From Argopecten irradians (taxonomy: Eukaryota > Mollusca > Bivalvia > Pectinida > Pectinidae): a stretch of 64,000 nt of DNA. Position 1 is the stretch's first letter. Every line of letters begins with the position of its first letter. The DNA lies in NCBI RefSeq assembly GCF_041381155.1, contig NC_091134.1:2476001-2540000 (forward strand), written 5' to 3'. The position numbers and the translations under genes were made by a program. Positions 11,412 through 39,061 of this stretch are shown here, one piece after another. The notes under the pieces are model-generated. The model was not told where the DNA came from. It was given only the letters and a program-made list of their open reading frames with translations, and made no database searches.

Positions 11412-13994
11412 TCAAGTAGCGTACATCTTGGCACAGATGTATACGACTACTGGGAATATCATGGAGAACTTCATGGGTACGTCTTTACCAGCTCCATTTT
11501 TAGAATCACTAGTGGAATTCGTTGAGCCGGCATCAGTCGTTCCAGGCGGCTGTGTGGTTACTTGCGTTACTGTTGTCGTTGGTGGTTCTGTACTTGAACT
11601 AATGCCGTCCGCATCTAAAAAACAATAACTTTTGTTAATCAAGACAATATACACTAGTAGTTATGTTAATTTGATAAAACACAAATATGCGAACTCCCTC
11701 ACATTTGATGATCTCTATACTTACTTAACATATGTGGTTCAGTTCGAATAGATTTAAAGTCTCATCATTTTAAATGACATTTTGTCAGTGTATGACAATT
11801 ATATTTTTGTCGAGCCAAACGAGATGAAATAACTAATAACACAAAACAAAAACAATTAAATATGCTGTAACTTATTTCGTACATTATTCAACAACTAGTA
11901 CATGTATTCCGTCTTTGCATATCACAGAGTTAGGTCCCTTGCGGGTAGGTATCGATTGTTACGTCACTATTTTGAGAGCACAATTCACGTCGTTTTCTCT
12001 GATACGTATGACGTTATGCTCGCAAACACATGACGTCACAATCAATGCCTACCCACAAGGGCAGATAACTCTGTAATATGCAAATACGGAATATGCATAT
12101 GTATATTAATACGAATGGCAATCGACAGCAGTTGTCATGCGAGTTCGTTTACGAGATCTGAATGAGATACTTATTAATCAAGAGTTCACCTGCATGGTTT
12201 TGTTTATGCGGTATTTTCACTAGTCAAATTTTCACTCATTTTGTGTTTCTTAAAGGGACAATTCAGTCTAAGAGAACATTAAAATTTGTACATATATCGA
12301 AACAAAACCAGTTCTAATTGAAATTAGATCAGTCGGTTTTACTGTGATATGTTTGAAAAGCCCATGGTCGTGACATGCGTGTAGATGTTAAAACTCGCTC
12401 GCTGTCCGCAATTACACATTGTGGTCGAACTTCTTGTATGCCGAACCCTGTCCCTTGCTCGTAGAGTAATGCAACTTTAGTCTAGAACTGCTCAAATCGC
12501 TCTAACAGTAGTATGTTTACCTTATTAGGTGAATTGTCTTGCCTTAAAAATCATTTTATCACCTTCTCAGTGCTTATGTACTTTATTTGTTTAAAGATGC
12601 TCCACCGCCGACAAATGGTATTTTTTCACTATCAAAAACAGGAGCAGACGATTTAGTAATGTTCATCAGTTACAAAAGTTACTTACTTTACACCATTACC
12701 ACCATTGAAAAGTTTGAGCTTCTAATTTTACTTCAAGTTAAAAATATAAAAAATAATTAATTGCATCCCGAAAAAATTCCGTGCCGTTATATCCTATATG
12801 GAATGAAGTACGGATTTCTCATGCACCAAAGGCAAAATAAATTATTTTATATCATTTTTTTGTGTTAATTAGACATATATGTACACAATTAAACACCAAT
12901 TATTGTTAAAATAATTAATATCATTTATGCTCTGTCGGCGGTAGAGCATCTTTAACGTGCGTGACTTTGGCTCGGGTATAGGTACATCGTCCATATTGTA
13001 CCTGTTTAAGTTATGTAAAAGAATTAGCCTGAGTGAATTGTCCCTTTAAAGAGTATTGATCAAACACGATCACAATTTAATTATTTTCCATTTATTCCCT
13101 CATTGTCCGAGACAAAAAAAATAAACAATAAGTAACAGCATATCAGGTTTATAAAATAAGCATACGTTGGAGTACGAGCGAATGACGAAGGGAAACAGTC
13201 ATGACTAAAATCAACTTTTGGTCGTAAAACTGTGAAGTGACAGAAATATGGTGCTCAAAAAATACTTCTATTTTAAGCCATGTCGATTATTTTATTGCAC
13301 ATTTATTTAAACAGCGTGCACGATGTGATGTTCACATGTTCCAGTATTAATCCTCAAATGAAATAGGTTTCAATTATTGACCTTTCTAGATGTTGTTAGA
13401 GATAGAGTTGTACTTGCTGACCTCCTCGTGAAAGGCGACTAAATTTAGAGTAATATAGAAGTTATAGGGACAATACTATAACCAACCAATTATGCTATAC
13501 TAACCCAAAGTATAATTGCTATCTAAATTACTATTCGTTTGGTGTAATTCCGACAAAATAAATGTGTTTGTTGAATAATACACAAACAAAAACGATACAA
13601 AAACACATTTTCTAGTTTGTTTATAGTCAGTAAGAATAGAATGAATAACGAGATTTTATTGATTTATTTATTTTTGCGGAATTTCTTACAAGATGATGCC
13701 CGCGTGTAAATGTTTAGCAAGATCATATATATTAACATATACTTTCCACACGTGTGTTAGCTAACATTCTCTTAAAATTAGCGTTGAGCCTTTAAACTTC
13801 ATTAGTGTAAATACTGCATTCTAAAGGAAATCATCGGTATCTATAAACTTAAACATACGTCAATTGTATACTTATAGTGTAGATATGTCTTTGTTCTTGA
13901 AAATAAAATAAAAAATATTAATCAAACAAGGACACTTACCATAAAATGTGAGGAGCAGGACTACGAGTGAAATGCAGTAGAAGGGAAGATACAT
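11412..13994 (-). CDS. Gene A: small secreted Thr-rich protein, GPI-anchor-like tail (2 coding exons)
   Basis: Coding exon 1 is 13994-13940 (55 nt). Its ATG follows the acceptor TTTTTAATACAG directly and it ends at donor G|GTAAGTGTCC in phase 1. Coding exon 2 is 11614-11412, entered after TTGTTTTTTAG. The joined frame gives 85 residues. A hydrophobic leader MYLPFYCISLVVLLLTFY comes first, then a short ectodomain rich in Thr/Ser (STEPPTTTVTQVTTQPPGTT, two NxS/T sites). The C-terminus is hydrophobic (MKFSMIFPVVVYICAKMYAT) after a small polar stretch (KNGAGKD), as in GPI-anchor signals. A poly(A) signal (AATAAA on this strand) lies near 11050. The leader exon upstream of 14010 is not fixed; GTAGGT donors near 15512 and 21557 are candidates. 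Genes B and C repeat the exon plan. The function of this extracellular mucin-like peptide is unknown. Confidence 0.6.
11906..12092. mobile_element. MITE with ~60-bp inverted repeats
   Basis: ATTCCGTCTTTGCATAT and CAGAGTTA at the left pair with matching sequence at the right end (ATATGCAAATACGGAAT). The inner arms GGGTAGGTATCGATTGTTAC pair with TGATTGTGACG...GGGTAGGC. It lies inside the large intron of gene A. No coding capacity. Confidence 0.8.
12595..12951. mobile_element. MITE, TTAA-flanked, family member 1
   Basis: Terminal repeats AGATGCTCCACCGCCGACA and TGTCGGCGGTAGAGCATCT (one mismatch) are bounded by TTAA at 12591-12594 and 12952-12955. Internal sequence AGCTTCTAATTTTACTTCAA and CACCAAAGGCAAAATAAATT recurs in reverse orientation at 39.3-39.6 kb and 50.0-50.4 kb. 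The element is non-coding. TTAA duplication is the piggyBac habit, but the ends do not start with the usual CCY. Confidence 0.8.
12956..13935. other. Intron sequence of gene A
   Basis: AT-rich intron with no further exon or element that I can support. Confidence 0.4.
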
Positions 13995-14183
13995 CTGTAT
14001 TAAAAACAGGAAGTTATTATTTCCTTTGTATGAAATTACAAACATAAAATGTATTAAATAACAGTTCGTCACTATATCGACGCATTTAAAAAACAGGAAG
14101 ATTCAATTATTATTTCCTCCTGTATGTAATTACAAATACTAAAGATAATGTTTTAAATATCAACTGACGCAATAGAAAATTGC

Positions 14184-14520
14184 GATTGGGACCTAGGACT
14201 ATTGAATTACTGTGTAATTAGGACCTAGGACTATTGAATTGCTGTGTAATTGGGACCTAGGACTATTGAATTACTGTGTAATTGGGACCTAGGACTATTG
14301 AATTACTGTGTAATTGGGACCTAGGACTATTGAATTACTGTGTAATTGGGACTTAGGACTATTGAATTACTGTGTAATTGGGACTTAGGACTATTGAATT
14401 ATTGTGTGATTGGGACCTAGGACTATTGAATTACTGATGATAGTTAACATGATTATTGGGACCTAAGACTATTGAATTACTGATGATAGTTAACATGATT
14501 ATTGGGACCTAGGACTATTT
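14184..14520. repeat. 32-bp tandem array
   Basis: Units of 32 bp (GGGACCTAGGACTATTGAAT plus TACTGTGTAATT) run for about eight copies. The last two or three units instead carry a longer linker containing TGATGATAGTTAACATGATT. The copies are close to identical, suggesting recent expansion. Confidence 0.9.
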
Positions 14521-14870
14521 AACTTCTGATTATACTGATGAAGATTAATATTATTCGTAACACGACTGGATTTAAATTATTGTATTTCATAATTACTACA
14601 TTGACAACATCAACCAATAGATTAATTACCCATCAAGAAAAAGTTATTTCATAACGAATACAAATTATTGCCATATTTAACAGAATTCAGGCTAAAATGT
14701 TTTTATTGATAGGCCACAAGTCATCGTAGTAAAATCATGTTCTTATAATCAATGTTAGAATCTTCTATACAATTGGTGAAACTTTTAATTTCGTCTTTTC
14801 TGACAAGGTCTGAATATTTCTAACCCTGTTTGAAATAATCGATTTCAAGGAAACAACAAAAGAAAAGGAT

Positions 14871-14926
14871 AAGAGAGAGATATGGAGTGAGAGAGAAAGA
14901 GAGAGAGAGAGAGATAGAGAGAGAGA
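14871..14926. repeat. GA microsatellite
   Basis: An interrupted (GA)n run of about 55 bases. Confidence 0.85.
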
Positions 14927-14929
14927 TTT

Positions 14930-16250
14930 ATAAAGTTCAGGTAATACATTCATGGTCTGATTTATGCACGCTATAAATGATTAGGTGTTGATTCTGTGAA
15001 TAATATTAAGTAAATATTGGAAAGTTTAATTAATATTGAATTAAAAAAGTTAATTATACGAATTTCAAAGTATACTACATTGCCATATTATTTGTTTTTT
15101 AGCTAATAGCTTGAAATTTTCTACTTTCTGAGAGGACTGGGTTACGTTTAAAAATGTTTCGTTAAGAAAACCGTAACTAGCTAGAAGTTTAAATCCGTAC
15201 ATAACTAATTTGTAATTCATTTAAAAAACAAAAGGTGTGATAAACAGTGGCGTTCTGGCAATGGCATACAGGAACGGGACGTCAAGGTCTAGTTTACAAT
15301 ATTTTCAAAATTTTTTGCACATAAATATGTAATATGATGGATAAAAGATTAAAAAAACATGTATTGCATTAAATGTATTTCATATGAAAATATAAAATAA
15401 AAAATGAACTTAAATATAAGATATGAAAATAAAATTTATAAAGATAGAGTATCACTTGAAAGTTGCCTTCTATTGACGTTACCAGACTTGTAATAGACAC
15501 ATGTACCTACCGTGCTATGATGTTGATACCCCTGCTGAATGGTTAGGACGGCTTAGGGTGTTGTCACAACGGACGTTTTTATATCGTATGTCTCCGGTCA
15601 ATATTTTTTCATGTCACGTGATAGACTATCAAACATTGTATCGTTATTACGTCACCTTCCTTCTTTATATTTCAAATGTCAATCAAAATTGTAAAGCATA
15701 AGGATGGAATTAAACTAAGGCAGACAAGGCACACGAGCTGATTTGTTCTTTCCTTGTTCTGTTTTACTATTGGTTAGTACTATAAATACCACTGAATGAA
15801 AAAAAAAAGTAAACAAAACACAATTTTGTTATTTCTGCAGTTAAATAGCCATCAAAGTGGTATTACCACGATACCAGGATAGACAGGTGTCGTTTAGTAT
15901 TATAAGGCCTTTCTAATAAGAGAAAATTAAAACCCAGTTTTCAGTTTCCTCATTTCAGAGAAGTCGAATGTCAAGTTCGCGTTTTATATTACACCTTTCC
16001 CTTTATGTCTATATTAAGTATGGAGTAAATCAACAAGGAAGGCACGGAGATATCCTTCCTTATTAATGATAAAACATTATCTTAACAGATACATTAATAA
16101 AACGAAAATATCTTAAAATTCACACATCCAATTTTGTTCCGGAATCTCTAACCCATTCTGGGGAAGACTATGGGAATATCATCTCTATGTATTATTAGTA
16201 AACTGCACTTTGTGGGTGCTGTTTAAAGTTTCTTTATGTCTTATTAAAAT
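14930..16250. other. Intergenic, no recognised gene
   Basis: AT-rich. A 66-codon frame at 15501 has no recognisable domain. CTATAAATAC near 15780 is TATA-like but no gene follows. Confidence 0.35.
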
Positions 16251-16279
16251 TCCTTGATGTTTTCGCAAAAAAATAAATG

Positions 16280-19200
16280 TTATACAATCGCAAAAACCGT
16301 CATCATTTCTATTAAAGTGAATACGACAAAAGCCGTCATCATTTCATATAGAAAAAAAATCAGACAAAACCGACGTCATTTCTATATAAAAGTTAATCAG
16401 ACAAAAAACTGTCATCATTTCTATATAAAAGATAATCAGACAAAACCGACGTCATTTCTATATAAAAGTTTATCAGACAAAACCGACGTCATTTCTATAT
16501 AAAAAGTTAATCAGACAAAACCGTCATCATTTCTATATAAAAGTTAATCAGACAAAACTGTCATATCATTTATCATTTCTATATAAAAGTTAATCAGACA
16601 AAACCGTCATCATTTCTATATAAAAGTTAATCAGACAAAACCGTCATCATTTCTATATAAAAAGTTAATCACGACAAAACCGTCATCATATTTAATATAT
16701 ATAAAAGTTAATCACACAAAACGTCATCATTTCTATATAAAAGTTAATCAGACAAAACTGTCATCATTTCTATATAAAAGTTAATCACACAAAACTGTCA
16801 TCATTTCTATATAAAAGTTAATCAGACAAAACTGTCATCATTTCTATATAAAAGTTAATCAGACAAAACTGTCATCATTTCTATATTAAAGTTAATCACA
16901 CAAAACTGTCATCATTTCTATATAAAAGTTAATCAGACAAAACCGTCATCATTTCTATATAAAAGTTAATCAGACAAAACCGTCATCATTTCTATATAAA
17001 AGTTAATCACACAAAACCGTCATCATTTCTATATAAAAGTTAATCAGACAAAACCGTCATCATTTCTATATAAAAGTTAATCAGACAAAACCGTCATCAT
17101 TTCTATATAAAAGTTAATCAGACAAAACTGTCATCATTTCTATATAAAAGTTAATCAGACAAAACCGTCATCATTTCTATATAAAAGTTAATCAGACAAA
17201 ACCGTCATCATTTCTATATAAAAGTTAATCAGACAAAACTGTCATCATTTCTATATAAAAGTTAATCAGACAAAACCGTCATCATTTCTATATAAAAGTT
17301 AATCAGACAAAACCGTGTCATCATTTCTATATAAAAGTTAATCACACAAAACTGTCATCATTTCTATATAAAAGTTAATCAGACAAAACCGTCATCATTT
17401 CTATATAAAAGTTAATCACACAAAACCGTCATCATTTCTATATAAAAGTTAATCAGACAAAACCGTCATCATTTCTATATTAAAAAGTTAATCAGACAAA
17501 ACTGTCATCATTTCTATATAAAAAGTTAATCAGACAAAAAAATTTCTTATAAAAGTTAATCACACACTGTCATCATTTCTATATAAAAGTTAATCACACA
17601 AAACTGTCATCATTTATCTATAAAAAGTTAATCAGACAAAACTGTCATCATTTCTATATAAAAGTTAATCAGACAAAACTGTCATATAAAAGTTTTCTCA
17701 TATATAAAAGTTAATCAGACAAAAACTGTCATCATTTCTATATAAAAGTTTAATCAGACAAAACTGTCATTATTTCTATATAAAAGTTAATCAGACAAAA
17801 CTGTCATCATTTCTATATAAAAGTTAATCACACAAAACTGACATCATTTCTATATAAAAGTTAATCAGACAAAACTGTCATTTCTATATAAAAGTTAATT
17901 CATTTCTATATAAAAGTTAATCAGCACAAAACATAAAAGTTAACATCATTTCTATATAAAAGTTATCAACGCAAACGTCATATATATAAAAGTATAAATC
18001 ACCACAAAACCGTCATCATTTCTATATAAAAGTTAATCACACAAAACCGTCATCATTTCTATATAAAAGTTAATCAGACAAAACCGTCATCATTTCTATA
18101 TAAAAGTTAATCAGACAAAACTGTCATCATTTCTATATAAAAGTTAATCACACAAAACGCGTCATCATTTCTATATAAAAGTTAATCAACAAAACTGTCA
18201 TCATTTCTATATAAAAGTTAATCAACAAAACGTCATCATTTCTATATATAAAAGTTAATCACACAAAACCGTCATCATTTCTATATAAAAAGTTAATCAC
18301 ACAAAACTGTCATCATTTCTATATAAAAGTTAATCACACAAAACCGTCATCATTTCTATATAAAAGTTAATCAGACAAAACCGTCATCATTTCTATATAA
18401 AAGTTAATCAGACAAAACCGTCATCATTTCTATATAAAAGTTAATCACACAAAACTGTCATCATTTCTATATAAAAGTTAATCAGACAAAACCGTCATCA
18501 TTTCTATATAAAAGTTAATCAGACAAAACCGTCATCATTTCTATATAAAAGTTAATCAGACAAAACCGTCATCATTTCTATATAAAAGTTAATCACACAA
18601 AACCGTCATCATTTCTATATAAAAGTTAATCAGACAAAACCGTCATCATTTCTATATAAAAGTTAATCAGACAAAACCGTCATCATTTTCTATATAAAAG
18701 TTAATCACACAAAACCGTCATCATTTCTATATAAAAGTTAATCAGACAAAACTGTCATCATTTCTATATAAAAGTTAATCACACAAAACCGTCATCATTT
18801 CTATATAAAAGTTAATCAGACAAAACCGTCATCATTTTCTATATAAAAGTTAATCAGACAAAACTGTCATCATTTCTATATAAAAGTTAATCACACAAAA
18901 CTGTCATCATTTCTATATAAAAGTTAATCAGACAAAACCTGTCATCATTTTCTATATAAAAGTTAATCAGACACAAAACTGTCATCATTTCTATATATAA
19001 AAGTTAATCAGACAAAACCTGTCATCATTTCTATATAAAAAGTTAATCAGACAAAACCGTCATCATTTCTATATAAAAGTTAATCAGACAAAACCGTCAT
19101 CATTTCTATATAAAAGTTAATCAGACAAAACCGTCATCATTTCTATATAAAAGTTAATCAGACAAAACTGTCATCATTTCTATATAAAAGTTAATCAGAC

Positions 19201-19720: not shown

Positions 19721-19864
19721 AGATATAAAAGCGCTTCATCCTAAGTAATATAATAACTGTAACTATAAAAAGAGAAGCAAACTGTTCAATACATGATATA
19801 AAATATACAGCACCTCTTCTCTTTGAAGCGTAATGTGAATAAAATTTGTATTTATTTATATTAA

Positions 19865-23680: not shown

Positions 23681-23689
23681 ACCCAAGTG

Positions 23690-24225: not shown

Positions 24226-24615
24226 TGACTGGCCTGATGAAAGGTGAGTGGCTTAAATACTACATCACTATATCACCCAAGGGTTTCGAAACCAGTTTTA
24301 GATGGAAGATACTCATTACGGTGAAGATGTGGAGAGGAACACAATTAACTTATAAACCTTCAAATAGTTTGTTAGAGTACCTACAGTACCATTCTCTATG
24401 TTTCAGGGGTTACTGTCACTGCCGTTATATCCACCCCTTGAAGATTTCATGGCAAAATTGAAGGCAGTTGTGTATGATATGAGGTTGCAGTTTGGTTCTT
24501 TTATGTACATTTGCATATCAAAATAAAAAGGTTGAGGGAAAAGTTGACATTGTACTGGATTTAGAATTGGACTTTACTGTGACATTTCCCATTGGAAGTT
24601 TAACGAAGTTTTAAC

Positions 24616-24945
24616 CGTCCAGTATTGTGAGAGAACAGAACGACCGTGATTGTCACCGACCAGTATTTTGGGTGAGCAGAACGGCCGTGATTGTTACCAT
24701 CCAGCATTGTGGAAGAACAGAACGGCCGCCATGGTTATCGTCCAGTATTGTGAGAGAACAGAACGGCCGTGATTGTGACCGTCCAGTATTTTGGGTGAGC
24801 AGAACGGCCGCCGTCGTTATCGTCCAGTATTTTGAGTGAACATAATGGCCGCCGTGGTTACCGTCCAGTATTGTGAGAGAACAGAACGGCCGTGATTGTT
24901 ACCCTCCATTATTTTGTGAGAACAAAACGCAATTATTGTTAAAAT
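24616..24945. repeat. 41-bp satellite, left block
   Basis: Eight or so units of about 41 bp (CCGTCCAGTATTGTGAGAGA, then ACAGAACGGCCGTGATTGTT). The same family reappears at 25925-26075. Confidence 0.85.
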
Positions 24946-25054
24946 ACCTCTTCTTTATTTACTCTATATAAAAGTTACATGATTAAAATGACTAGCTCCC
25001 TACTTTATTCCAAAACCCTCGCTCAGCTGTGTGTTAGTCTTTCGAAATTTGGCC

Positions 25055-25495: not shown

Positions 25496-25727
25496 CTGAA
25501 AGCCGGCACACACCCGGACTTGGCTATTTCCGTTTAACTAATCAGATTCGAGGTGGTTCCCGATCACGCCTTCAGTTGCTAGGCGATGTAACAATTGGGA
25601 GGAGCTAGTTTCCGATCACGCCATCTCGGCACAGTCGGTTGACGTAATCAAATGACGTTAGTGTCGATTGGAAACTATTACCAAGCACGTCCTCTTCTTT
25701 ATCTTGTACGCGTGAGGTTTGTAAAAA

Positions 25728-25860: not shown

Positions 25861-25924
25861 GTAAGTTTCTGGTTTCCCTTGACAAGTCCCGGGATCCCCT
25901 ACATATATCCCTGAACCCATATTT

Positions 25925-26075
25925 TAACTGTATATTACTGTCACGTATTGCGGGGGAACAGAAAGGCCGCAATATTGTTACTGTCCAGTATTGTGGGAGA
26001 ACAGAACGGCAATCATTGTTACCGTCCAGTATTGTGAGACAACAGGACGGCAGCAATTTTTACCGCCCAGTGTTG
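25925..26075. repeat. 41-bp satellite, right block
   Basis: Three to four units of the family at 24616-24945 (GTCCAGTATTGTGGGAGAAC and variants). On the minus strand they supply the last ~25 codons of the gene B frame. Confidence 0.8.
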
Positions 26076-29000
26076 GTCCATCACCGTTGTTTAAGTATGT
26101 ACCGAGACCGTCTGTATTGTCTTTCGGATCAACACTTCTCGACGCCTTCACATTTACGTGTGCTGTTGGGTGTATATTAGGTACTCTGCTAGACATGGGA
26201 CCTCTCGATCTGTCACCCGCACGACCTATCGTCTCATGGTGTATGGTTCCATAAATATTTATAGTGGTATCTGGCTGAAGAATGAAGACACTTGTATGTA
26301 CTTGTGTCACTAACCCTGTATCACGATGGTCAGTTGATGACCGAGACTTTGGTGGACGTCTTTTCTTGCTGCTCCTCCCCGAGGTAGCCTCATTGTCAAG
26401 ACTGAGAGTTCCAGTGAACATGATCATTGTGTCATATTCAACGTAGGTATCTAAAAATGAGGAATACCGGCCAGAACTGAACACACTCCCAATACCAGTT
26501 TCATTCTCAAAACTACCCGTTACATACCAGTAGTCGTCAGTGGAATGAGAAAGTGTTTTCGTGGGATGAATGGTGGATTGAAAAAAATGAGAACTATCAT
26601 GCGTCGGTGAGTCGTTTTCGACCGAAACAGTCTGGTGATTTAGTGTAAGCGTATCCAATGCATGGGAATTCCAGCTTTGTGTTTGCTCTGTATATGGTGC
26701 CGTACTTATAACTGGACGATCTGTATATGTTTGTGTTGAAATCTCCGCTCTGACAATGGTTGTTGCTCCAGATTTCATGTCGCCATTTCCTGTATTTACA
26801 GTTGACCTTTCCGCAATTGTTCTTTGTATTTGCTCTGTATATGGTGTCGTACTTATAACTGGACGATCTGTATGTGGTTGTGTTGAAATCTCCTCTCTGA
26901 TAATGGTTGTTGCGCCAGTTATTTTGTCGCCATTTCCTGTATTTACAGTTGACCTTACCGCACTTGTCCTTTGTATTTGCTCTGTGTATGGTGCCGTACG
27001 TATAACTGGACGATCTGTATGTGTTTGTGTTGAAATCTCTGCTCTGACAATGGTTGTTGCGCCAGATATTTTGTCGCCATTTCCTGTATTTACAGTTGAC
27101 CTTACCGCACTTGTCCTTTGTATTTGCTCTGTATATGGTGCCGTACTTATAACTGGACGATCTGTATGTGTTTGTGTCGAAATCTCAGCTCTGACAATGG
27201 TCGTGGCGCCAGATATTTTGTCGCCATTTCCTGAATTTACAGTTGACCTTCCTGCAACTGTCCTTTGTATTTGCTCTGTGTATGGTGCCGTACTTATAAC
27301 TGGATGATCTGTATGTGTTTGTGTTGAAATCTCAGCTCTGACAATGGTCGTGGCGCCAGACATCATGTCGCCATTTCCTGTATTTACAGTTGACCTTACC
27401 GCACTTGTCCTTTGTATTTGCTCTGTATATGGTGCCGTACTTATAACTGGACGATCTGTATGTGTTTGTGTTGAAATCTCTGCTCTGACGATGGTTGTGG
27501 CACCTGATATTTTGTTGCCATTCCCTGTATTCACAGTTGACCGAATCGCAGCTTGACTAGATCTACGTGGCCGTGGTTTCTGAGCCATGATTGTTCTATA
27601 CAGAATCGGGGTATACAGCACTGTAAGAATGAAACAAACAAATATGTAATTGGTTTACAGCCAGTAATTGGCGATATTGTTACAAAAACAGCGAAAAGTT
27701 TATGTGTTAAGTTTCGATGTACATCCTGTCATCTTCAGACAAATGATCACCAGAATTTATCACGCAATTTTCATGAATGGAAAATTGACTAGAAATTACG
27801 GTTTCATTCGAGATTATTTCAAAATGACATCATAGTTGTAAAATTGCAATAAAACTTTGAGAGATTCGAGAAAATACTCAGCCTTGGCCGTTTCAACATT
27901 TTGAGTATTCAGTAACCATTTGTTTTCTGATATTGCTTTCTTGTTTATAGAGTTTGACCATTATTGGATATTTAGGTCTCAGGAATAAGTGTCATGCACA
28001 AAAACATTGAGATTGAAATGAGTAAGGAATATACATACTTTACAACGTCATACGCATTTGGATCATAATCGAATTAGCATGTATGGTTGTTAATCTAATT
28101 AGACTGCGATGGATGCTATGCTCTACGTCACGCTCCAATACAAGATCGAACAACGATCTGTTCGGGGTCACCATAGCATGACCCCTGGCATAGAATCGCA
28201 AAAATACGTTCGAGAGAATTAACCCAACCGAATGATCCGTAGGCGAGACGCTGATTGACTAACCAGGAGGGTCATGCTGTGGTGACCCCCTAACGGAATG
28301 TTGTCAGATCTTGTATTGGAGCATAACGTAGAGCATCGTATACGAGCGGAATAACAAGTCTAAAGGAACGTGACGTAGAGGAGCGGAATTACAAGTCTAA
28401 TAGATGTGACGTAAAGCATCGTAATGGAACGGAACACAAGTCTAATGGATATGACGTAAAGCATCGTAGTGGAACGGAACACAAGTCTAATGGATGTGAC
28501 GTAAAGCATCGTAGTGGAACGGAACACAAGTCTAATGGATGTGACGTAAAGCATCGTAGTGGAACGGAACACAAGTCTAATGGATGTGACGTAAAGCATC
28601 GTAGTGGAACGGAACACAAGTCTAACGGATATTGCGTAAAACATCGTAGTGGAACGGAATACAAGTCTAATGGATATGGCGTAAAGCATCGTAATGGAAC
28701 GGAACACAAGTCTAATGGATGTGACGTAAAGCATCGTAGTGGAACGGAACACAAGTCTAATGGATGTGACGTAAAGCATCGTAGTGGAACGGAACACAAG
28801 TCTAACGGATATTGCGTAAAACATCGTAGTGGAACGGAATACAAGTCTAATGGATATGGCGTAAAGCATCGTAGTGGAACGGAACGCAAGTCTAATGGAT
28901 ATGACGTAAAGCATCGTAGTGGAACGGAACGCAAGTCTAATGGATATGACGTAAAGCATCGTAGTGGAACGGAAAACAAGTCTAATGGATGTGACGTAAA

Positions 29001-30534
29001 GCATCGTAGTGGAACGGAACACAAGTCTAATGGATGTGACGTAAAGCATCGTAGTGGAACGGAACACAAGTCTAATGGATGTGACGTAAAGCATCGTAGT
29101 GGAACGGAACACAAGTCTAATGGATGTGACGTAAAGCATCGTAGTGGAACGGAACACAAGTCTAATGGATGTGACGTAAAGCATCGTAGTGGAACGGAAC
29201 GCAAGTCTAATGGATATGACGTAAAGCATCGTAGTGGAACGGAACGCAAGTCTAATGGATATGACGTAAAGCATCGTAGTGGAACGGAAAACAAGTCTAA
29301 TGGATGTGGCGAAAAGCATCGTAGTGGAACGGAACACAAGTCTAATGGATGTAACGTAGAGAATCGTAGTGGAACCGAATTACAAGTTTTTGATTAGATT
29401 GTTATGGTTGTAAGATAGACCTTCACATAGAATGGGAGATAACGCCTGTTTGATTTTATGACATTGGTCTCAATACTTCAATACAAATTACTTAACTACA
29501 AATGATCACTTGATCGTAGACTTTGATCAGGTTAGTCTAAGCTAAAGTCCTGTTTACTGAAACATTTACTTATTTTTGTGGTGGTGCAGAATCGAAGTTC
29601 TTCGAAAACACCAGCCAAATGACAGTGATGTTTTGGTGTCCAGAAATAGAAGGGTGTAGTTGAATAATACCTCTACCCACACGCGACTTAATCCGATTTT
29701 TAAAAGGTTTTACCCATACACTACTAAAATTATTTTTAATCAGTATAAAATCAAATATATTCATGTCTTATCACACAACGATGCCTCATATATTTTCAAA
29801 ATACTATATGCATTATCAAATCATTAATCCATTTCACAAATACTTTAAGCAATTATCTACTAAACAACTAATACCGATTTTATTTTTCTGTTTTCATTTT
29901 TTCGACCATGCCCACGAATTCCATGCGTCAGCAAATATTAAATAAGTTAACACAGTTTGATTGGGAAAATTAATGAATGAACTCGTTCTTAATAAATCAA
30001 TTCTATTGTGTCGAGAAGCATATTCAAATAACTATTTTATTGAATATATTTTTGGTACGCTCATATTTGAGGTAAAATAAATCAAAATATTAATGGACGC
30101 TCTAATTAATTGTCCGTAAATTGCAATATAAAATCTTGAATCAGCACAGTAAGTGTTAGGCGAATTTTTGCCATAGCGACTACCACTAAAATCATATCAA
30201 AAATTTTACACTGCTGAAAAGATATCACTAAAGCATCGGTGCTCCTCAATTAAATTATCTTAAAATACATTTGTAAGAATTAACGCACTTATCTAACAAA
30301 AACTTATAAATTTCTCATTATGAAATATGAACCTTTTGTTCCGTGTGATTCACACATATAAAAAGCTCTAACTACCAACAAAACAACGCATGTTAGGAGT
30401 GCGGTGGATACTTATCATTGATGTACGGTGATGTGGCGACAAAAATTAACAGGTCTTTGATACGGATCATTGTTTTACTTACACATGTTGATTAATGCGA
30501 TGCTGATCCAAGGAAATACATGTGAAACCTTCAT
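25978..30534 (-). CDS. Gene B: secreted repetitive Thr-rich protein (2 coding exons)
   Basis: Coding exon 1 is 30534-30483 (52 nt). The ATG follows acceptor ACTTTCAG directly and the donor is T|GTAAGT, phase 1. Coding exon 2 starts at 27620 after CATTCTTACAG and is open to 25978. The joined frame is 564 residues. The leader is MKVSHVFPWISIALINML then LYTPILYRTIMA, a good signal peptide or anchor, followed by basic KPRPRRSS. Six 49-residue repeats follow (STQTHTDRPVISTAPYTEQI core), then a unique Ser/Thr-rich region with SSKKRRPPKSR. The last ~25 residues are encoded by the 41-bp satellite. A GTAAAA donor at about 26060 could instead splice to another exon. A leader exon with donor GAG|GTATGT is at 31469. 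The exon plan matches genes A and C. It is probably extracellular; the function is unknown. Confidence 0.55.
26680..27545 (-). repeat. 147-bp coding repeat array in gene B
   Basis: Six head-to-tail 147-bp (49-codon) units. Differences include GNGDKISG, GNGDMMSG and GNGDMKSG, and HTDRP, HTDHP and YTDRP; most preserve Thr/Ser content. The opposite strand is also open over 183 codons (26756-27307), which I treat as a shadow. Confidence 0.85.
27640..28110. other. Intron sequence of gene B
   Basis: AT-rich. No additional exon or element identified. Confidence 0.4.
28113..28337. mobile_element. MITE with ~70-bp inverted repeats
   Basis: The left arm ATGCTCTACGTCACGCTCCA, TACAAGATC and GGGGTCACCATAGCATGACC pairs with the right arm GGTCATGCTGTGGTGACCCC, GATCTTGTA and TTGGAGCATAACGTAGAGCA. 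The centre is unpaired. The TACAAGATC...GATCTTGTA boundary suggests TA-flanked inner ends. The 45-bp satellite begins right at its right end. Confidence 0.8.
28338..29388. repeat. 45-bp satellite array inside a gene B intron
   Basis: About 23 units of 45 bp (GTAAAGCATCGTAGTGGAAC, GGAACACAAGTCTAATGGAT, GTGAC). Blocks of several units recur in the same order, so larger segments have also been duplicated. Two minus-strand frames stay open for over 300 codons only because 45 is a multiple of three. Confidence 0.95.
29389..30480. other. Intron sequence of gene B
   Basis: AT-rich; nothing recognised apart from the exon that follows at 30483. Confidence 0.4.
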
Positions 30535-31468
30535 CTGAAAGTATAAAACATACATAAACTTTAGGTTTTACATCAATATAGACATTCAAGTGGAGTGGTA
30601 AATGTTTGATTTAGTTCAGCTTTGTTATTTTCATCTGAAGTTAAGCTGATGCATGTTAATCATCTAAAGCGATTCGAATTTTCCGATGGCATTAATGCTT
30701 ATTAATTTGTCGAATACATGTGATGAACTAAGGAATCAATATCTGATATCAACAGAATAGTCTTGTCTTTACTCTTTGAATAAAAACGTCATTTAAAATT
30801 CCAATTTATTTGAATGATTAATATTATCAGATAATATATTATTTACAATTTATTCATTAGAAAAGTTTGCAGAGCTGGTACAATTGAAGTCAAATGTGAC
30901 GTAACTGAGCGAAAATGTTGTGTAATATTTTTCAGTAAAATTGCAAATCGTTTTTTTTTAGAAATAAGCTATGAAAACCATTCAAATGCATGGAGAAATA
31001 TGTATGATGCTTTAAAAGCATTTACAGCTGTACAACATAAATTTTTTATGCATTATAATAGCTGCTTATTTTATGGTTTACATATATTTAGATGATACCA
31101 TTTCCGAAGAGTCACTTAATAGTTACTAATAGCACAGTAAAAATGTACAAAGAAATGGTAGACCACAGCTTAGCTTCATGGTTGGTCTGTGTGTGTTCAA
31201 ATCACTGCAAATATCATATATTGTTTTGCAGTATCGCCGAAATTCAATTTGAGTTCTAATTTGATTTATGAAAATAAAGCCAATTCATAATTCATTGTAG
31301 TATTGTAATTCTTAAACTGTTGATAATCTTTGGTAGAGAATAACATATTAAAAGCTCTTGTTGATTTAAGAGTATGAAAGAAACGGCACATATAACTTTA
31401 AATGATTTTACCTAAAGGTAATTCATATTATTATATTTGACAGATATGTGCCATATAAATTTACATAC

Positions 31469-31530
31469 CTCTTGACCCCGGTAGTGTCCTGTCCAGATAT
31501 GACGGAGGAATGGCATCTATCGGTGTTTTT
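31469..31530 (-). other. Probable 5' leader exon end of gene B
   Basis: On the minus strand GGGGTCAAGAG is followed by GTATGTAAAT, a good donor 0.93 kb before the ATG exon at 30534. The exon's 5' limit is not determined. The GTG...AGG sequence around it contains no ATG-led frame of interest. Confidence 0.4.
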
Positions 31531-32019
31531 TTATTTGATGTATCATATCAGTACATCTGACGGAAGTTCCTATTACAAAATGTGGTTTTGTTCCCCTTGG
31601 GAGTAAAGTGATCAGAGCTGAGCGTCATACCAACACTTCTGTATGTTTACCAGGTCAGATTACATCTACCATTTCATAGTTCTATTTGTAACATTTGCAT
31701 CAAGATCAATACTCAGTATAAGTATTGAATGTTATCTTTATACTTAGTACTTTATATCACACATATAATCTTTTTCGCGCCTTTGTTATGTATCTTTACA
31801 TAAGTAAAAAATATTTGTAAATATCACTTGTACATATATGTATTATAGATACAGAAGAAATGATTATGACACGGATAATAATTAATGATGTTTCAAATGA
31901 GATGTTTTATAGATTAATGATACAATGTCTATATTATTTCGGAAAGTGTTCTGTCGGGCACGTAGAATGTGCCTAACCTCTTTATACGACAACTAAGGGT
32001 AATGTGATGCGTGGTTGTG

Positions 32020-32193
32020 ATGTTGCTATGCTTTTTATATTTTTCCAATTATTTCCTGTTTACAGATGGATGTATATCATTTCAGTGTACAAACAACATA
32101 ACAATCATTAATAATATCCGTCTTACCAATAAAAATGTTAATGGAACAATTTGTGGAATTGCTGTACATGTATCTTTGAAAAGATCACCATAG
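32020..32193 (+). CDS. Possible small secreted peptide or exon (low confidence)
   Basis: From the ATG at 32020 a 58-residue frame begins with a hydrophobic stretch MLLCFLYFSNYFLFT and then carries three cysteines (DGCISFQCTNN, NGTICGIAV) and two or three NxS/T sites. The same place can be read as a splice acceptor (TTTCCTGTTTACAG) followed by a phase-1 exon. I do not recognise a family, and neighbours give no support. Confidence 0.2.
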   Translation: MLLCFLYFSNYFLFTDGCISFQCTNNITIINNIRLTNKNVNGTICGIAVHVSLKRSP

Positions 32194-32689
32194 TTATATA
32201 TATCAAAAGTGATATGTGACTGTGAATCTTTTATAGAGAACAACCAACTAAATAATTTTACATAAACCACAGTGTTAAACTTTGCTTAAGTTTTGTACTG
32301 TATTATTAAAACAAAGGAATATTAGTTAGCTATTGTGTTCTATAACTAAAGTCTAGGTTCTCATATAACACTAGATAAAAAAAAGTTTGGGTCCTTCTGC
32401 TCAAACTCCAACCAGGGTAGCTTCATTGAAATCAGGCGCATTTTGCACTAACAAATCCTGAAATTCTAATATTTTTACCTATTCATTATCAAAATTGATA
32501 TTTTGAACCTAAATCTCAATACGATTTTCCAAATTTATATCAATGTTATCTAGGAATAATTACCTGTCAGAAAACATTTTTACTTTTGAAATTCATAGTT
32601 AGCCAGTCAATCAGCGGCCGGGTTAAAATTCTATCCTGGGCTCAATCTTGTATACAGAAGGGCCATTTCGAAGGTCTTTTTATTTAGTT

Positions 32690-33000
32690 GGTTGTTCCCT
32701 ATACGTTGCCTAGCAGGTAAGATATATAAAGCTGGCTCAATAATATACATAATAATCTTTTTAATTTAGTTTTTTATTTTGCTCCTCTAGCAGTAATTGG
32801 CGCCACTTGTATAGCTCTAAAGATGACACCAGTATCTTCCTAGAAATCCTTTGTGCTACAATGTTGCAGCTACGGAGAAATGTGCAATCCCGGCAGTCAT
32901 TTACATACATAGATTGGCATGAAGAAAAATGAACTTTAATCTTGATTAATAATTCATATTCATTATTGTCTGCCGAAGTTATTAGCATTAGATATCCTTG
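32690..33000. repeat. Dispersed repeat shared with 61060-61300
   Basis: GCTCCTCTAGCAGTAATTGG, TAGCTCTAAAGATGACACCA and CTACAATGTTGCAGCTA occur here in order. Close versions occur at about 61160-61255 in the same orientation. The boundaries are unclear. Confidence 0.6.
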
Positions 33001-33770
33001 TGCACTTATTCTTCTAGACTTCAGGGTTCTTAACTATTTTATTTTCAAGAGGTTCCGTAGAAATCTATTATGTTACATTTAATTTCATTCTAGTTTTATC
33101 TCTAAAACACACAGACATTTGTGTTATATCTCCAAAATTTAAAAGTTAAATTATTCAAGTTAGTATTATTTTTTGGGGTAAATATTACTTACATTCGTAA
33201 TAAGTGAAAATGAAATTTTACGATTCGTCCATCATTGTTGTACACTCGGAGAGAGATGTGTCTGTGTAAAAGATAGACGGCCAACATTGGGGGGGATATT
33301 GTATTTCATCCAAGGAAAAAGCGACGTTTTTTCCCATGTGATTAAATATATTTCTACTAAACACAGACACTGTTATAAATATGAGGTATAATATTATCGT
33401 CGTACATTGGCTCCAATATGGTATGTGGTATGTTCGTACATTAAAACACATGATCGGAATTTTTTTACCACGTACGAATGTTGGTAGACGAACGATAACT
33501 CTTATTTGACTTGTGATATAACTTGAATGAATTATTGAGAAATAAAAATTACTTTTTTTTTCATTTAAAATCAAGGGTACCTTCCATGACATCGTATAAT
33601 TTCAAAAGCAGTGAGATTACCGCCACAATTATTAGTAGCAATGCTCTGAACAACTCGAGACGGCTTTGGCCACTGTATATGACCGTCACGGCGGTCACAT
33701 TTTTAATACTACAAACAAAAGATTAGTTACATTGGTCGAAGAGACGGTGTTAGCCATGAAGTACTGTGTG
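33001..33770. other. Intergenic, no recognised gene
   Basis: A minus-strand frame of 124 codons (33592-33218) has no recognised motif. GTGTTATATCTCC near 33122 echoes the fold-back family at 3040. Confidence 0.35.
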
Positions 33771-33774
33771 TTTA

Positions 33775-34262
33775 GTTAAATCACTGTCCTATTAACAGTC
33801 AGGGTCATTTAAGGACGGCCTCCCATGTATGTGATGTGTAGCGTGTGTGAAGTGCGGGGCGTGTGATTGGGAGACTGCAATTTATTTATGTTGTGTCTTC
33901 TTGTAATAGTTAAACTGTTGTCCGTTTTACATTGCTATCTCACTGAAACATACCGTTGAGGACACCAAACAAACACACCTCACCTGGTCAAATAAGACCG
34001 ATAACGGACAAACCAGTCGTCTCACTCCATCTATGCTGAGCGTTAACCAGAAGCAGAAACTACCACCTTTATAGACTTTGATGTGGCTCGGCCAGGTTAC
34101 ATAACCCAGAGCATTCCTTACAGGGGCGAGCGCTTAACTGAAGGATAGTTTCAAGGATGATGCAAGGAAAAGTAAAAGAAGTTAGTAAGAGAAATTATAA
34201 AATCCTAAATTTAGTCGCCTTTACATTTGAGTTAATAGGTAGAATTGTAGTGCCCTAACCGA
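33775..34262 (-). mobile_element. Dispersed ~530 bp family, near-complete copy
   Basis: Full order of family landmarks is present: AGGGTCATTTAAGGACGGCC at one end and TTTAGTCGCC with GTGCCCTAACC at the other. A second, 3'-half copy follows at 34303-34450 in the same orientation (TTCTATTAATAGCCAGGGTC). Confidence 0.75.
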
Positions 34263-34302
34263 AGGAAATAATACTTGGGGTGGCTTGGCATGTTATAGGG
34301 TT

Positions 34303-34450
34303 CGACGTTCTATTAATAGCCAGGGTCATTTAAGGACAGAATGTCAGTATGTTTTGGGAGGCTGTTGTATATTTGTGCTGTGTCTCCTTATCATAGTGGA
34401 ACTCCTGCCCTTTTTATAGTGCTATCTCACTGAAGCATGCCGCCGAATAA
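34303..34450 (-). mobile_element. Dispersed ~530 bp family, 3'-end copy
   Basis: Contains the tail and GTGCTATCTCACTGAAGCAT, then stops. It is in tandem with the longer copy just upstream. Confidence 0.65.
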
Positions 34451-34894
34451 ACCAGAAAGTCCCTGGGACTGGCTAATCGGAATTGATAATTACTAGTAAT
34501 ATACCAAAGTCATTTGTCAAAATCCACTGAGAATTTCTAAGAGCTCGTGGTGAGTTGTTAATATTTCTCTTGGAACTCCGGATTTTCTCCGTCAAATTTT
34601 CCCGTCTTATAATGGTCTGGAATAGTATTATTGAATATTGATTGTGTAACATAAGGTAAATCAAACTATAAATAACCACAAAACATCAGTATACATTCGT
34701 GTGTCATTTTATTACTTTAAACAAGTTTGGAGAGATGTTTGATAAGTTTTGTGGAAATAGAACTTCATCTACCCTCCTCGTCAAATTATTGAAAGTATGG
34801 TATCAAAAATTTAATACAATTTTACAAATACACATTTAGTAATGAACAAAAACTGTGTATCGTTGTTATATTCTATCAATATTTTAAACAATGA

Positions 34895-36392
34895 TATGAA
34901 GTGTCATCTACCAGCCAAGTGTCATCTACCACCAAGTGTACCACCAAGTGTTATCTACCGGCCAAGTGTCATCTACCACCAAGTGTTATCTACCGGCCAA
35001 GTGTCATCTACCACCAAGTGTTATCTACCAGCCAAGTGTCATCTACCAACCAAGTGTCATCTACCACCAGGTGTCATCTACCAGCCAAGTGTTATCTACC
35101 GGCCAAGTGTCATCTACCACCAAGTGTCATCTACCAGCCAAGTGTCATCTACCACCAAGTGTCATCTACCAGCCAAGTGTCATCTACCGGCCAAGTGTCA
35201 TCTACCAGCCAAGTGTTATCTACCGGCTAATTGTCATCTACCAGTCAAGTGTCATCTACCAGCCAAGTGTTATCTACCGGCCAATTGTCATCTACCAGCC
35301 AAGTGTCATCTACCAGCCAAGTGTCATCTACCGGCCAAGTGTCATCTACCAACCAAGTGTCATCTACCAGCCAAGTGTCATCTACCAGCCAAGTGTCATC
35401 TACCAACCAAGTGTCAACTACCAACCAAGTGTCAACTACCAACTAAGTGTCATCTACCAACCAAGTGTCATCTACCAGTCAAGTGTCATCTACCAGTCAA
35501 GTGTCATCTACCAGCCAAGTGTCATCTACCACCAAGTGTCATCTACCAGTCAAGTGTCATCTACCAACTAAGTGTCATCTACCAGTCAAGTGTCATCTAC
35601 CAACCAAGTGTCATCTACCAACCAAGTGTCATCTACCAACAAGTGTCATCTACCAGTCAAGTGTCATCTACCACCAAGTGTCATCTACCAACCAAGTGTC
35701 ATCACCAGCCAAGTGTCATCCACCAGCCAAGTGTCATCCACCAGCCAAGTGTCATCCACCAGCAAGTGTCATCTACCAGCCAAGTGTTATCTACCGCCAA
35801 TTGTCATCTACCAGTCAAGTGTCATCTACCAACCAAGTGTCATCTACCGCCAAGTGTATCTACCAACCAACCAATTGTCATCTACCTCAAGTGTCATCTA
35901 CCAGCCAAGTGTCATCTACCAACCAAGTATCAACTACCAACCAAGTGTCAACTACCAACTAAGTGTCATCTACCAACTAAGTGTCATCTACCCTCAAGTG
36001 TCATCTACCAGTCAAGTGTCATCTACCAGCCAAGTGTCATCTACCAGCCAAGTGTCATCTACCACCAAGTGTCATCTACCAGTCAAGTGTCATCTACCAA
36101 CTAAGTGTCATCTACCAGTCAAGTGTCATCTACCAGTCAAGTGTCATCTACCAACCAAGTGTCATCTACCAACTAAGTGTCATCTACCAACCAAGTGCCA
36201 TCTACCAGTCAAGTGTCATCTACCACCAAGTGTCATCTACCAACCAAGTGTCATCCACCAGCCAAGTGTCATCCACCAGCAAAGTGTCATCTACCAACCA
36301 AGTGTTATCTACCGGCCAAGTGTCATCTACCAGTCAAGTGTCATCAAACAACCAATTGCTATTTACAAGCCAAGTGTCATCTTTGATAAAAG
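34895..36392. repeat. 18-bp minisatellite array (about 83 units)
   Basis: Units are CAAGTGTCATCTACCAGC with 17-bp (ACCACCAAG) and rarer other-length variants. Single-base changes make sub-types (GTTATC, CCGGCC, CCAACC, CCAGTC, CATCCACC) arranged in short recurring strings. The unit length of 18 keeps all three plus frames open. The apparent hexapeptide products (SSTSQV, CHLPAK, VIYQPS) are by-products, and the 17-bp units switch between them. Confidence 0.95.
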
Positions 36393-37560
36393 GCTAGTAT
36401 CAATACTATCTACTGCTACCATCCTTAAACAAATGATAAAAGTATCAACATCAATTCTTCCGTTTCAAAAGCGGGTTGAATATCACTGATAGAAACTTTC
36501 GTTCGAAAGGCAATAAAATACTGATAATAAGATTATATAATGGATAATTCCACCTAGGCAAAGTTTGATATTGTTTATAAATAAATTAATTTTCAGACAA
36601 ATATTGCTCAAAATGAGCGTGATAATAGTTATAAAAAGTGTTATGCATAAATTATGTGAGAAGAAAAAGTCATCAACTACCTCTTCCAGACGAATCATAG
36701 CAGGGCTGGTACTTATATCAGTACATCTTGCTTTTCAAATATACCGGTCAAACAATATACTCAATGAAATAATATAATCAACATTTTATACACAAGACAA
36801 TTAAATAAAAACTTGTAAATCGATGGACGGAATAATAGCTATCACAATTTGGATTTTTAACATCAATTTGTTTACTGGAATCAATTAAATAACAACATAC
36901 AAAGCATTTGAACAATTTCGATTCTTATATTATCATCAGATTATATTAAGAATGAACTGTTTAAATGTAGCCTTGAGAATGCTTATCACATCAAAATACT
37001 CTCAGGCAATAACCAAACAAGGAAATGGGCAATATTACAATGTATAAAAACTTCATTATAAAGTACTGTTTAAAACAACTTTATAATACAGTTTGGTTTA
37101 CTATGGACGGCCTTCCCAGAGTACAATGTGCTGCAGGTGAATGTCTCTATTCATGTCACAGTACAACAAAACCCGAACACCCTCTCACGACTACGGTACC
37201 ATCCGTGAATTATAGGTTTTTTTATCCAGTATTACTAAATTAAAAGATAATGTCATTTTAAGTATACGGTCTGTTCCCTAAGATTGTCATTTTAAGTTGG
37301 AATGAGAAGAGTCATTTCGTTCTACTGTTACCTCTACATATCTTAATATTCGGACATCGATATTACAGAATGACTATGCTATCCAAATTGTAATTATACA
37401 GTACCCTAGCATTAGTATGAACGCTGGTTAAAAGCTATATTTGACATTTAAGAGACAATATCCTAAAATTTCAGATACATTATCGAAAATGTTAAGAAAG
37501 TTGCATTTAAAAAAAATATCTATAGATTTGTTGCGTTTTTTTACTTTTGTGAAAGGTCGA
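36393..37560. other. Intergenic between satellite and gene C
   Basis: AT-rich. Short frames at 36565 and 37025 (plus) carry no recognised domain. Confidence 0.4.
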
Positions 37561-37565
37561 CCATT

Positions 37566-39061
37566 CTATGAAATGTGAAGCAGCAACGTTATGACAGACA
37601 AAAACATGCTGTTGAAGACAAGTCCGCCACATTGTAAAGCACCAGAATCATAATTAACGGTAGTTAGAGTGGAATTGTCTGTAGTGCCATTCGTTGGAGT
37701 GTTACTTGTAGGGGTACCACTTGTTGGAGCGCCACTTGTTTGGGTACCACTTGGTGGAGAGCCACCTGTTGGAGTGCCACTTGTAGGGGTGCCACTTGGT
37801 GTGGTGCCACTTGTAGGGGTGCCACTTGGTGTGGTGCCACTTGTAGGGGTGCCACTTGTTGTAGTGCCATTAGTTGGGGCGACACTGGTTGGAATTGTCA
37901 CGGTAGTAGTTGGAGCGGGACTGGTTTCAGTTGTAATGTTAGTAGGAGTGGTAGTAGCAGCATTGGTAATGATGGGCACCACAGTTACTAAGACCACTGA
38001 AACAACCAAATACAACAGTATAGTGGTATAACGGAAACATTATACTATAATTCAAAGTTACACTTTAAACTTATAATGTTATAACCACCATCAAAATGTG
38101 CTTTATTGTGAGTAATTTTAAGCAATAAACTTCCAAGTGATAGTATATAGTCTTTATGATTTTGGTGACCGATATATATAGAATGTCGCTCGATAGTAAT
38201 TATCAAATTGCATTCATACCACCTACGTACTATTATTGTGTAACATTTCATTGCATGTTTTACAATAATAGGCAACTAAAACGTATAAAATAAGCGTCAA
38301 ATTATAAAATCGTTTTTAATAAGGAAATTATCCAATTATTACTGTCTGAACTTTTTAAAAAAAAAACCGCTATTGCGCCATGTTATTTGTAATTTTGTAG
38401 TAATGTGTCGTTCCATAGCAACGATAATGGTATTGAATAGACTTCGAATTCGAAAGTATGTTGGTTTAGTTATGAAGATAGGTCTGATTATAATTAAGAT
38501 TGTAATCAATCACTGGTAGGTGACAGATGGCGTTGCACTTACATCACATTGAATGCCGCTTTTCACCATTCAGGCTAAATTTTGTTTTTAATCGTGCTAA
38601 AAAAATACATTCGTCATTTTCGATCCACTACCCCTACACCGATCTCATTACTGTACATTGTAGTACACAGGACATACATTTGAACTTATTACTTCGGGTA
38701 TACTACCGATGTATAGGTAAACAAAACATAGAATGTAAATATAAATATTATTATCGAAATTATCAATATTGGCTAAAATATACATAATATGTAACCTGTT
38801 TTCAGCTTATTGTCAAACGGTAATATGATGTAAATATCTAAGGACACGACACTATTAATAGTGTTAGTAAATGACTAGGAATAATGCTATGCTAATCGAC
38901 TGGGCAGCTGAATGTTCATATTCATTACAATGACATGGCTTAGTTTAAAGTAGTGGAATATGGTATAGTATGAACTATGTAATATAAATTATAGGTAATA
39001 ACTTACCTGTTACTCCAAACAGGAAGTGTAAACCAACGCCTGACTGCTCAATAGGCCCCAT
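37566..39061 (-). CDS. Gene C: secreted mucin-like GPI-anchored protein (2 coding exons)
   Basis: Coding exon 1 is 39061-39007 (55 nt). Its ATG follows acceptor TTTTTACAG directly and it ends at ACAG|GTAAGTT in phase 1. Coding exon 2 is 37996-37566, entered after TTTGGTTGTTTCAG. The 161-residue product starts MGPIEQSGVGLHFLFGVT and continues VVLVTVVPIITNA, a signal peptide with a likely cut before ATTTP. The ectodomain is almost only Thr, Ser, Pro and Gly, with repeats of SGTPTSGTTP and a few NxT sites, as in O-glycosylated mucin stalks. The tail is polar VNYDSGALQCGG, then hydrophobic LVFNSMFLSVITLLLHIS to the stop, as in GPI-anchor signals. A leader exon with donor AAAG|GTAAGAAT lies near 40974, with a CCAAT box (minus) near 41092. 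It is a probable cell-surface or mucus component. Confidence 0.65.
38050..39000. other. Intron of gene C
   Basis: AT-rich intron between the two coding exons. No nested gene identified; the 86-codon plus frame at 38527 is unrecognised. Confidence 0.4.

What the first reader, a model, noticed from the sequence alone, without database searches (positions are those of the whole stretch)
11412..39061. Three same-strand genes with one exon plan for secreted Thr-rich surface proteins
Genes A, B and C are all on the minus strand. In each the ATG is the first three bases after an AG acceptor, the ATG exon is 55, 52 and 55 nt, it ends in phase 1 at a GTAAGT donor inside or just after the signal peptide, and the next exon holds a Thr/Ser-rich ectodomain. 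In A and C that exon ends in a GPI-like tail. The ectodomains share little sequence (Thr/Pro, 49-residue repeats, SGTPT repeats). This suggests a fast-evolving local family whose stable part is the signal-peptide exon cassette, with repeat expansion remaking the body. The splice phases were checked by hand and fit in all three.
Basis: partly seen in the sequence, partly recalled or inferred. Interest (0 to 1): 0.78.

Follow-up and report, generated by a model that had tools for sequence, protein, structure and literature searches.

The report
Three neighbouring secreted mucin-like genes
Three neighbouring genes in an animal-type genome appear to make secreted threonine-rich proteins with the same unusual first exon, but no shared sequence was found, so they are probably fast-changing surface proteins of a familiar kind rather than a new type of system.

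Summary
The anatomy is real. All three exon pairs lie where stated: A 85 aa, B 564 aa, C 161 aa. ATG follows an AG acceptor directly; exons are 55/52/55 nt, end in phase 1, donor GTAAGT. The window has no other open 40-70 nt cassette with GTAAGT, against 0.05 phase-1 ones expected per strand. In each gene the chosen second exon is the longest phase-matching one within 6 kb, narrowly in A. B's repeats show synonymous excess in its frame.

The cassette is not a stable sequence: the three first exons resemble one another no more than shuffled DNA, and no convincing paralogues were found in the 846-Mb genome. Signal-peptide exons ending in phase 1 are a known general animal pattern (PMC1626468). 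A and C have GPI-like tails by a crude rule; B does not. What remains unusual is the local cluster: 2 of 9 hydrophobic phase-1 matches to a strict genome-wide pattern (100 of 111 matches seen) lie 8.5 kb apart. My reading: lineage-specific mucin-like secreted genes, perhaps sharing only an ancestral exon plan. No RNA evidence.

The parts
13940..13994 (-). gene A, first coding exon (55 nt, MYLPFYCISLVVLLLTFY + 1 nt), AG|ATG, GTAAGT donor
11412..11614 (-). gene A, second exon: short Thr/Ser/Pro-rich segment and GPI-like tail, stop
11615..13939 (-). gene A intron; holds an inverted-repeat element (terminal arms 12250-12268 and 13031-13049)
30483..30534 (-). gene B, first coding exon (52 nt, MKVSHVFPWISIALINM + 1 nt), AG|ATG, GTAAGT donor
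25978..27620 (-). gene B, second exon: six 49-residue repeats, then a non-repeat Ser/Thr-rich part; stop lies in a 41-bp minisatellite so the 3' end is uncertain
26675..27542 (-). 147-nt tandem repeat, 5.9 copies, coding for the 49-residue units
39007..39061 (-). gene C, first coding exon (55 nt, MGPIEQSGVGLHFLFGVT + 1 nt), AG|ATG, GTAAGT donor
37566..37996 (-). gene C, second exon: rest of signal peptide, SGTPT-type repeats, GPI-like tail, stop
37684..37892 (-). 15-nt tandem repeat coding for the SGTPT units of C

Best explanation
A, B and C are three real minus-strand genes for secreted, lineage-specific proteins with two coding exons each. The first exon carries most of a signal peptide; the second carries a Thr/Ser-rich, probably O-glycosylated body. 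In A (about 40 mature residues) and C (about 110) a hydrophobic C-terminal tail probably directs GPI anchoring, making small mucin-like cell-surface proteins; B is a secreted repeat protein without a convincing anchor. The AG|ATG first exon suggests that a non-coding exon is spliced on upstream. I think it somewhat more likely than not that the plan was inherited from one ancestral gene by local duplication, after which repeat expansion and drift removed all detectable sequence likeness. Shown: anatomy, non-chance occurrence, coding signal in B. Inferred: splicing, secretion, glycosylation, anchoring, common descent.
For: Exact anatomy; 3 phase-1 cassettes against 0.05 expected per strand; with the GTAAGT donor no further hydrophobic phase-1 cassette of 34-90 nt in 264 kb except one of 73 nt with a poor acceptor; chosen exon 2 is the longest compatible in each gene; synonymous excess in B; GPI-like tails in A and C, rule passed by 10 of 836 frames; A and C are 2 of the 7 Thr/Ser/Pro-rich open segments found in 264 kb; 2 of 9 hydrophobic phase-1 strict matches genome-wide (among 100 listed of 111) are B and C, 8.5 kb apart, where 0.0007 such pairs are expected.
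Against: No sequence likeness between the first exons or the genes; no convincing paralogues elsewhere; B differs in size, tail and composition; the strict pattern was written to fit B and C, so the clustering figure is after the fact; with looser donors (GT[AG][AT]G, 34-90 nt) the 264 kb hold several other hydrophobic phase-1 cassettes, one with a good acceptor (C1:2626047-2626107, +, 61 nt, GTATGT); A's second exon wins only by 66 to 53 codons; C's repeats show no synonymous excess; C has no AATAAA or ATTAAA within 1.5 kb of its stop; no RNA.
Confidence: 0.5

Rival explanations
1. Three real secreted genes of independent origin. The plan is the usual animal one (signal-peptide exon of about 18 codons ending in phase 1), and the shared AG|ATG start is a coincidence noticed because the reader looked for likeness.
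For: Phase-1 excess near codon 20 in vertebrate and arthropod signal-peptide genes (PMC1626468, section 6; Tordai and Patthy as told there); no likeness between first exons or gene regions.
Against: ATG at offset 0 does not look like the genome's norm: hydrophobic open phase-1 matches are 9 of 100 listed at offset 0 (of 111) and 3 of 100 listed at offset 4 (of 112) (a weak contrast, and only one other offset was tried), and two of the nine are these neighbours.
Confidence: 0.33
2. One or more of the gene models is wrong: the small exon or the Thr-rich frame belongs to other exons, or is not transcribed, most likely for B (end in minisatellite) or A (very short).
For: No transcript data; B's stop lies in a 41-bp repeat; repeats keep several frames open; A is only 85 aa and its second exon leads the next candidate by 66 to 53 codons.
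Against: Non-chance cassette, best-exon ranking, B's synonymous excess and long open non-repeat part.
Confidence: 0.12
3. The AG directly before ATG is a spliced-leader trans-splice acceptor rather than the end of a 5' UTR intron.
For: Acceptor abuts the ATG in all three. That this is common at trans-splice sites is recalled, not from a call.
Against: Little bears on it here: no leader RNA was looked for; the genome shows only a modest excess of the strict AG|ATG...GTAAGT pattern (111 against 73 in the reversed-pattern control).
Confidence: 0.05

Closest known systems
SCPP gene cluster of vertebrates, in particular MUC7
   Same: Neighbouring secreted-protein genes related by place and signal peptide; in MUC7 the first coding exon is the second exon and codes for the signal peptide; Pro/Thr/Ser repeats were gained within the gene (PMC4997351, passages).
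   Different: Vertebrate family with salivary, milk and enamel members; its introns are phase 0 (recalled), here phase 1; MUC7's signal peptide is conserved across mammals, here the neighbours' first exons show no likeness; that MUC7 lacks a GPI tail is recalled.
Animal signal-peptide genes with a phase-1 intron near the cleavage site
   Same: First coding exon of about 18 codons ending in phase 1 (PMC1626468, section 6 and passages).
   Different: ATG is the first base of the exon; that paper states that introns directly before the start codon are not visible in its data. In human genes, 5' UTR introns are depleted in signal-peptide genes (PMC3077370, passages).
Small GPI-anchored mucin-like surface proteins (CD52, CD24 type; recalled)
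   Same: Signal peptide, short Thr/Ser-rich body, hydrophobic tail (A, C).
   Different: No sequence relation was tested; anchor only inferred.
Conotoxin precursors (mollusc genes)
   Same: Exon plan shared within a superfamily while the mature-peptide exon changes most (PMC3862624, abstract).
   Different: Here the first exons are unrelated in sequence and the proteins have one or two cysteines each.

Membership tests
Signal-peptide genes with phase-1 intron near the cleavage site | intron of phase 1 close to codon 20 of a signal-peptide gene | tested here: met
   exons of 55, 52, 55 nt, phase 1, hydrophobic N-terminus by Kyte-Doolittle; no signal-peptide predictor was at hand
GPI-anchored mucin-like proteins | hydrophobic C-terminal tail after small residues, few charges | tested here: inconclusive
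   A and C pass a crude home-made rule set after seeing them, B fails; no GPI predictor was at hand
GPI-anchored mucin-like proteins | Thr/Ser/Pro-rich body | tested here: met
   T+S+P 39% (A), 32% (B), 55% (C) of exon 2; B did not reach the stricter 40-residue criterion
GPI-anchored mucin-like proteins | O-glycosylation and GPI attachment in cells | not testable with these tools
   needs protein work
   alignment scores no better than shuffles
   figures made after the pattern was known
SCPP family | phase-0 introns (recalled) | tested here: not met
   the intron after the signal-peptide exon is phase 1 in all three
Conotoxin-type precursors | cysteine-rich mature region (recalled) | tested here: not met
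   Cys: A 7 and 79; B 540, 541; C 141

The most novel reading that the evidence does not exclude
A local gene family recognisable only by exon plan: duplicates of one signal-peptide-exon gene whose bodies and even signal peptides have been wholly replaced, mostly by in-frame tandem-repeat growth, an invertebrate counterpart of the SCPP/MUC7 locus.
Probability: 0.3. Interest if true: 0.55.

Novelty: new member of a known kind. Interest (0 to 1): 0.3.

Why it matters
If the three genes share descent although no detectable likeness is left, gene families of fast-changing surface proteins would have to be found by exon plan and place instead of sequence, and many 'orphan' secreted genes might be old duplicates. 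If they do not, this is an ordinary set of orphan mucin-like genes with the usual animal signal-peptide intron.

Tried and rejected
Homology between A, B and C by DNA and first-exon alignment: none convincing; the single strong A-C match (72% over 323 positions, inverted) is a repeat element in A's intron and upstream of C; the other matches listed are short (E 0.02 or more). Paralogues in the own genome: B only itself (77 of 86 candidates scored); A itself and three weak places (E 0.5, 6.7, 9.3); C itself and many Thr/Pro low-complexity matches among 74 at E up to 10 (150 of 386 candidates scored). The best of these, C14:4385471 (L016, E 3e-8, three stops inside), falls to 23 residues at 21 bits with composition adjustment and vanishes with the low-complexity filter; the next (C8:7837958, E 1e-4, repeat part only) was not looked into. 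Pfam (ten frames given): nothing for C's second-exon frame; B's only below cut-off to DUF7382 (E 0.0015); A was not scanned, nor were the first exons. My first pattern search had a wrong gap length and is used only for the genome's size and the window's place. Downstream of two other genome-wide cassettes (C4:49511231 and C2:8211989; L043, L044) no open stretch longer than 31 and 56 codons followed a candidate acceptor within about 3.3 kb, so these may be chance or have longer introns; five other hydrophobic phase-1 places of the nine were not fetched. Offset control: 3 of 100 at offset 4 against 9 of 100 at offset 0, suggestive only. Literature: searches listed no paper that I recognised as describing this locus; papers opened: PMC1626468 (abstract, section 6, passages), PMC3077370 and PMC4997351 (passages), PMC3862624 (abstract and outline). 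No structure prediction was run: low-complexity bodies without relatives would give a poor model.
Full report
What was checked. The window lies in an unnamed 846-Mb genome of 1508 contigs (C1:2476001-2540000). I read the three gene regions and rebuilt the splices. All coordinates agree with the finding: A, ATG exon 13994-13940 (55 nt) and 11614-11412, 85 aa; B, 30534-30483 (52 nt) and 27620-25978, 564 aa; C, 39061-39007 (55 nt) and 37996-37566, 161 aa. Each ATG follows AG after a stretch of 60-73% pyrimidines, and each first exon ends in phase 1 before GTAAGT.

Chance. Counting open phase-1 cassettes AG|ATG ... GTAAGT of 40-70 nt, the window has three, all on the minus strand, all hydrophobic; a Markov null gives 0.05 per strand (100 simulations, at most 1 in any). 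With the donor shortened to GTA the null gives 6.1 per strand, so the result rests on the consensus donor. In the 264 kb made of the window and 100 kb on each side, a scan in all phases for 34-90 nt with GTAAGT gave eight cassettes: A, B, C; one of 73 nt at window 60148 with a poor acceptor (phase 1, hydrophobic); and four that are neither hydrophobic nor phase 1. With looser donors (GT[AG][AT]G) further hydrophobic phase-1 cassettes appear, most with weak acceptors, but one on the plus strand at C1:2626047-2626107 (61 nt, TTTTACAG acceptor, GTATGT donor) looks as good as ours apart from its donor. It was not followed up.

Genome-wide, YTTNCAGATGN{43,58}GTAAGT, a pattern that I wrote to fit B and C and that leaves A out, matches 111 places against 73 for the reversed control. 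Of the 100 listed, 48 are open and 14 of these hydrophobic: 9 in phase 1, 4 in phase 2, 1 in phase 0; B and C are two of the nine. Nine places scattered at random over 846 Mb would give 0.0007 pairs within 8.6 kb. With the ATG four bases further in, 112 against 93 places match, and of 100 listed 11 are open and hydrophobic, 3 of them in phase 1. So a start codon at the very exon start does not look like the genome's rule, though 9 against 3 is a weak contrast and one offset is a thin control. All these figures were made knowing the finding.

Are they genes? B's six 147-nt units carry 43 distinct changes, 19 synonymous against 11.2 expected (P 0.006); one antisense frame also scores (20 of 44, 13.1 expected, P 0.014), the other four do not (P 0.74 to 0.95). 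C's 14 units show no excess (16 of 37, 14.4 expected). A was not tested. B's non-repeat part stays open for 232 codons, 200 if its minisatellite end is left out, longer than any run in 40 simulated 64-kb sequences (maximum 185). B's stop lies in a 41-bp minisatellite (25945-26075; a repeat of the same period and like unit lies at 24614-24929), so its true 3' end is open to doubt. The first AATAAA or ATTAAA lies 358 bases past the stop in A and 968 in B; C has none within 1.5 kb.

What the proteins look like. T+S+P make up 39%, 32% and 55% of exon 2 in A, B and C. By Kyte-Doolittle means over 11 residues, stretches at or above 1.6 are found only at the two ends in all three; the C-terminal one is strong in A and C (2.5 and 2.4) and weak in B (1.8). 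A crude GPI rule, set after seeing A and C, is passed by 10 of 836 open frames of 60 or more codons in the 264 kb; A and C pass, B fails. A's tail has a lysine near its end, which is a mark against it (general knowledge). Established logic of the secretory pathway then suggests two small mucin-like GPI proteins (A, C) and one secreted repeat protein (B). None of this was tested in cells or with a dedicated predictor.

Are they one family? The first exons align no better than shuffles: 0.45 (A-B), 0.78 (A-C) and 0.69 (B-C) of 500 shuffles score as well. The regions share no convincing DNA except an inverted repeat element, 12620-12940 against 39263-39572. No convincing paralogue of any of the three was found elsewhere in the genome, though the search scores only the best candidates; the best C match, E 3e-8, proved to be composition. 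The plan's main traits are general: in vertebrate and arthropod genes with signal peptides phase-1 introns peak near codon 20 (PMC1626468, section 6), explained by proto-splice sites or by exon shuffling (as told there). What is less ordinary is the intron directly before the ATG, which that paper says its data cannot show, while 5' UTR introns as a class are depleted in human signal-peptide genes (odds ratio 0.84; PMC3077370 passages), and the cluster of three on one strand within 28 kb.

Comparison. The nearest known case in kind is the SCPP cluster with MUC7: a secreted-protein cluster held together by place and signal peptide, in which MUC7's first coding exon, the second exon, codes for the signal peptide, and Pro/Thr/Ser repeats were gained in the gene (PMC4997351 passages). 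SCPP introns are phase 0 (recalled), so this is an analogy, not membership. Rapidly evolving molluscan secretomes are a known theme (PMC4897951 and PMC1676022, titles and abstract starts seen in the listing), but the species here is not identified.

Verdict. Observation confirmed; interpretation partly supported; ordinary in kind (lineage-specific mucin-like secreted genes) with one open and testable oddity, the clustered AG|ATG signal-peptide exons without detectable sequence likeness.

Noticed in passing
12250-13049: Element with inverted terminal arms (TTAAAGGGACAATTC...) inside A's intron; part of it is 72% alike, inverted, to 39263-39572 upstream of C, and by eye a stretch of it recurs at C1:50469506. 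A TTAA-flanked non-autonomous transposon is likely.
   Followed up: partly
C1:2626047-2626107, + strand (window coordinate 150047, outside the window): Another AG|ATG phase-1 hydrophobic cassette (61 nt, MYKYIHLLYVFYSCINISTF, donor GTATGT) about 111 kb from C.
   Followed up: no
260-682 and 9458-9988, + strand: Two ankyrin-repeat open frames, closely alike by eye and about 9.2 kb apart, apparently a tandem duplication.
   Followed up: no
28374-29387: 45-bp minisatellite (22.5 copies) in B's intron that is open in three of the six frames over 330 or more codons, beside an inverted repeat (28113-28341).
   Followed up: no
34899-36382: 18-bp minisatellite of 83.6 copies between B and C, open over 429 codons on the + strand; coding was not tested.
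   Followed up: no
51328-53343, - strand: Frames of a major-facilitator transporter (Pfam MFS_1; 51328-52407 above, 52981-53343 below the cut-off), on the same strand as A, B and C.
   Followed up: no
3724-5824 (-) and 59713-60090 (+): Remains of a reverse transcriptase (RVT_1 at 5165-5824; zf-RVT at 3724-4350 below cut-off) and of a DDE_Tnp_1_7 transposase (piggyBac type is recalled).
   Followed up: no
25945-26075 and 24614-24929: 41-bp minisatellites of like unit, one in the last codons of B's frame, one downstream: B's C-terminus may have been supplied by the repeat, or the true exon ends earlier.
   Followed up: no
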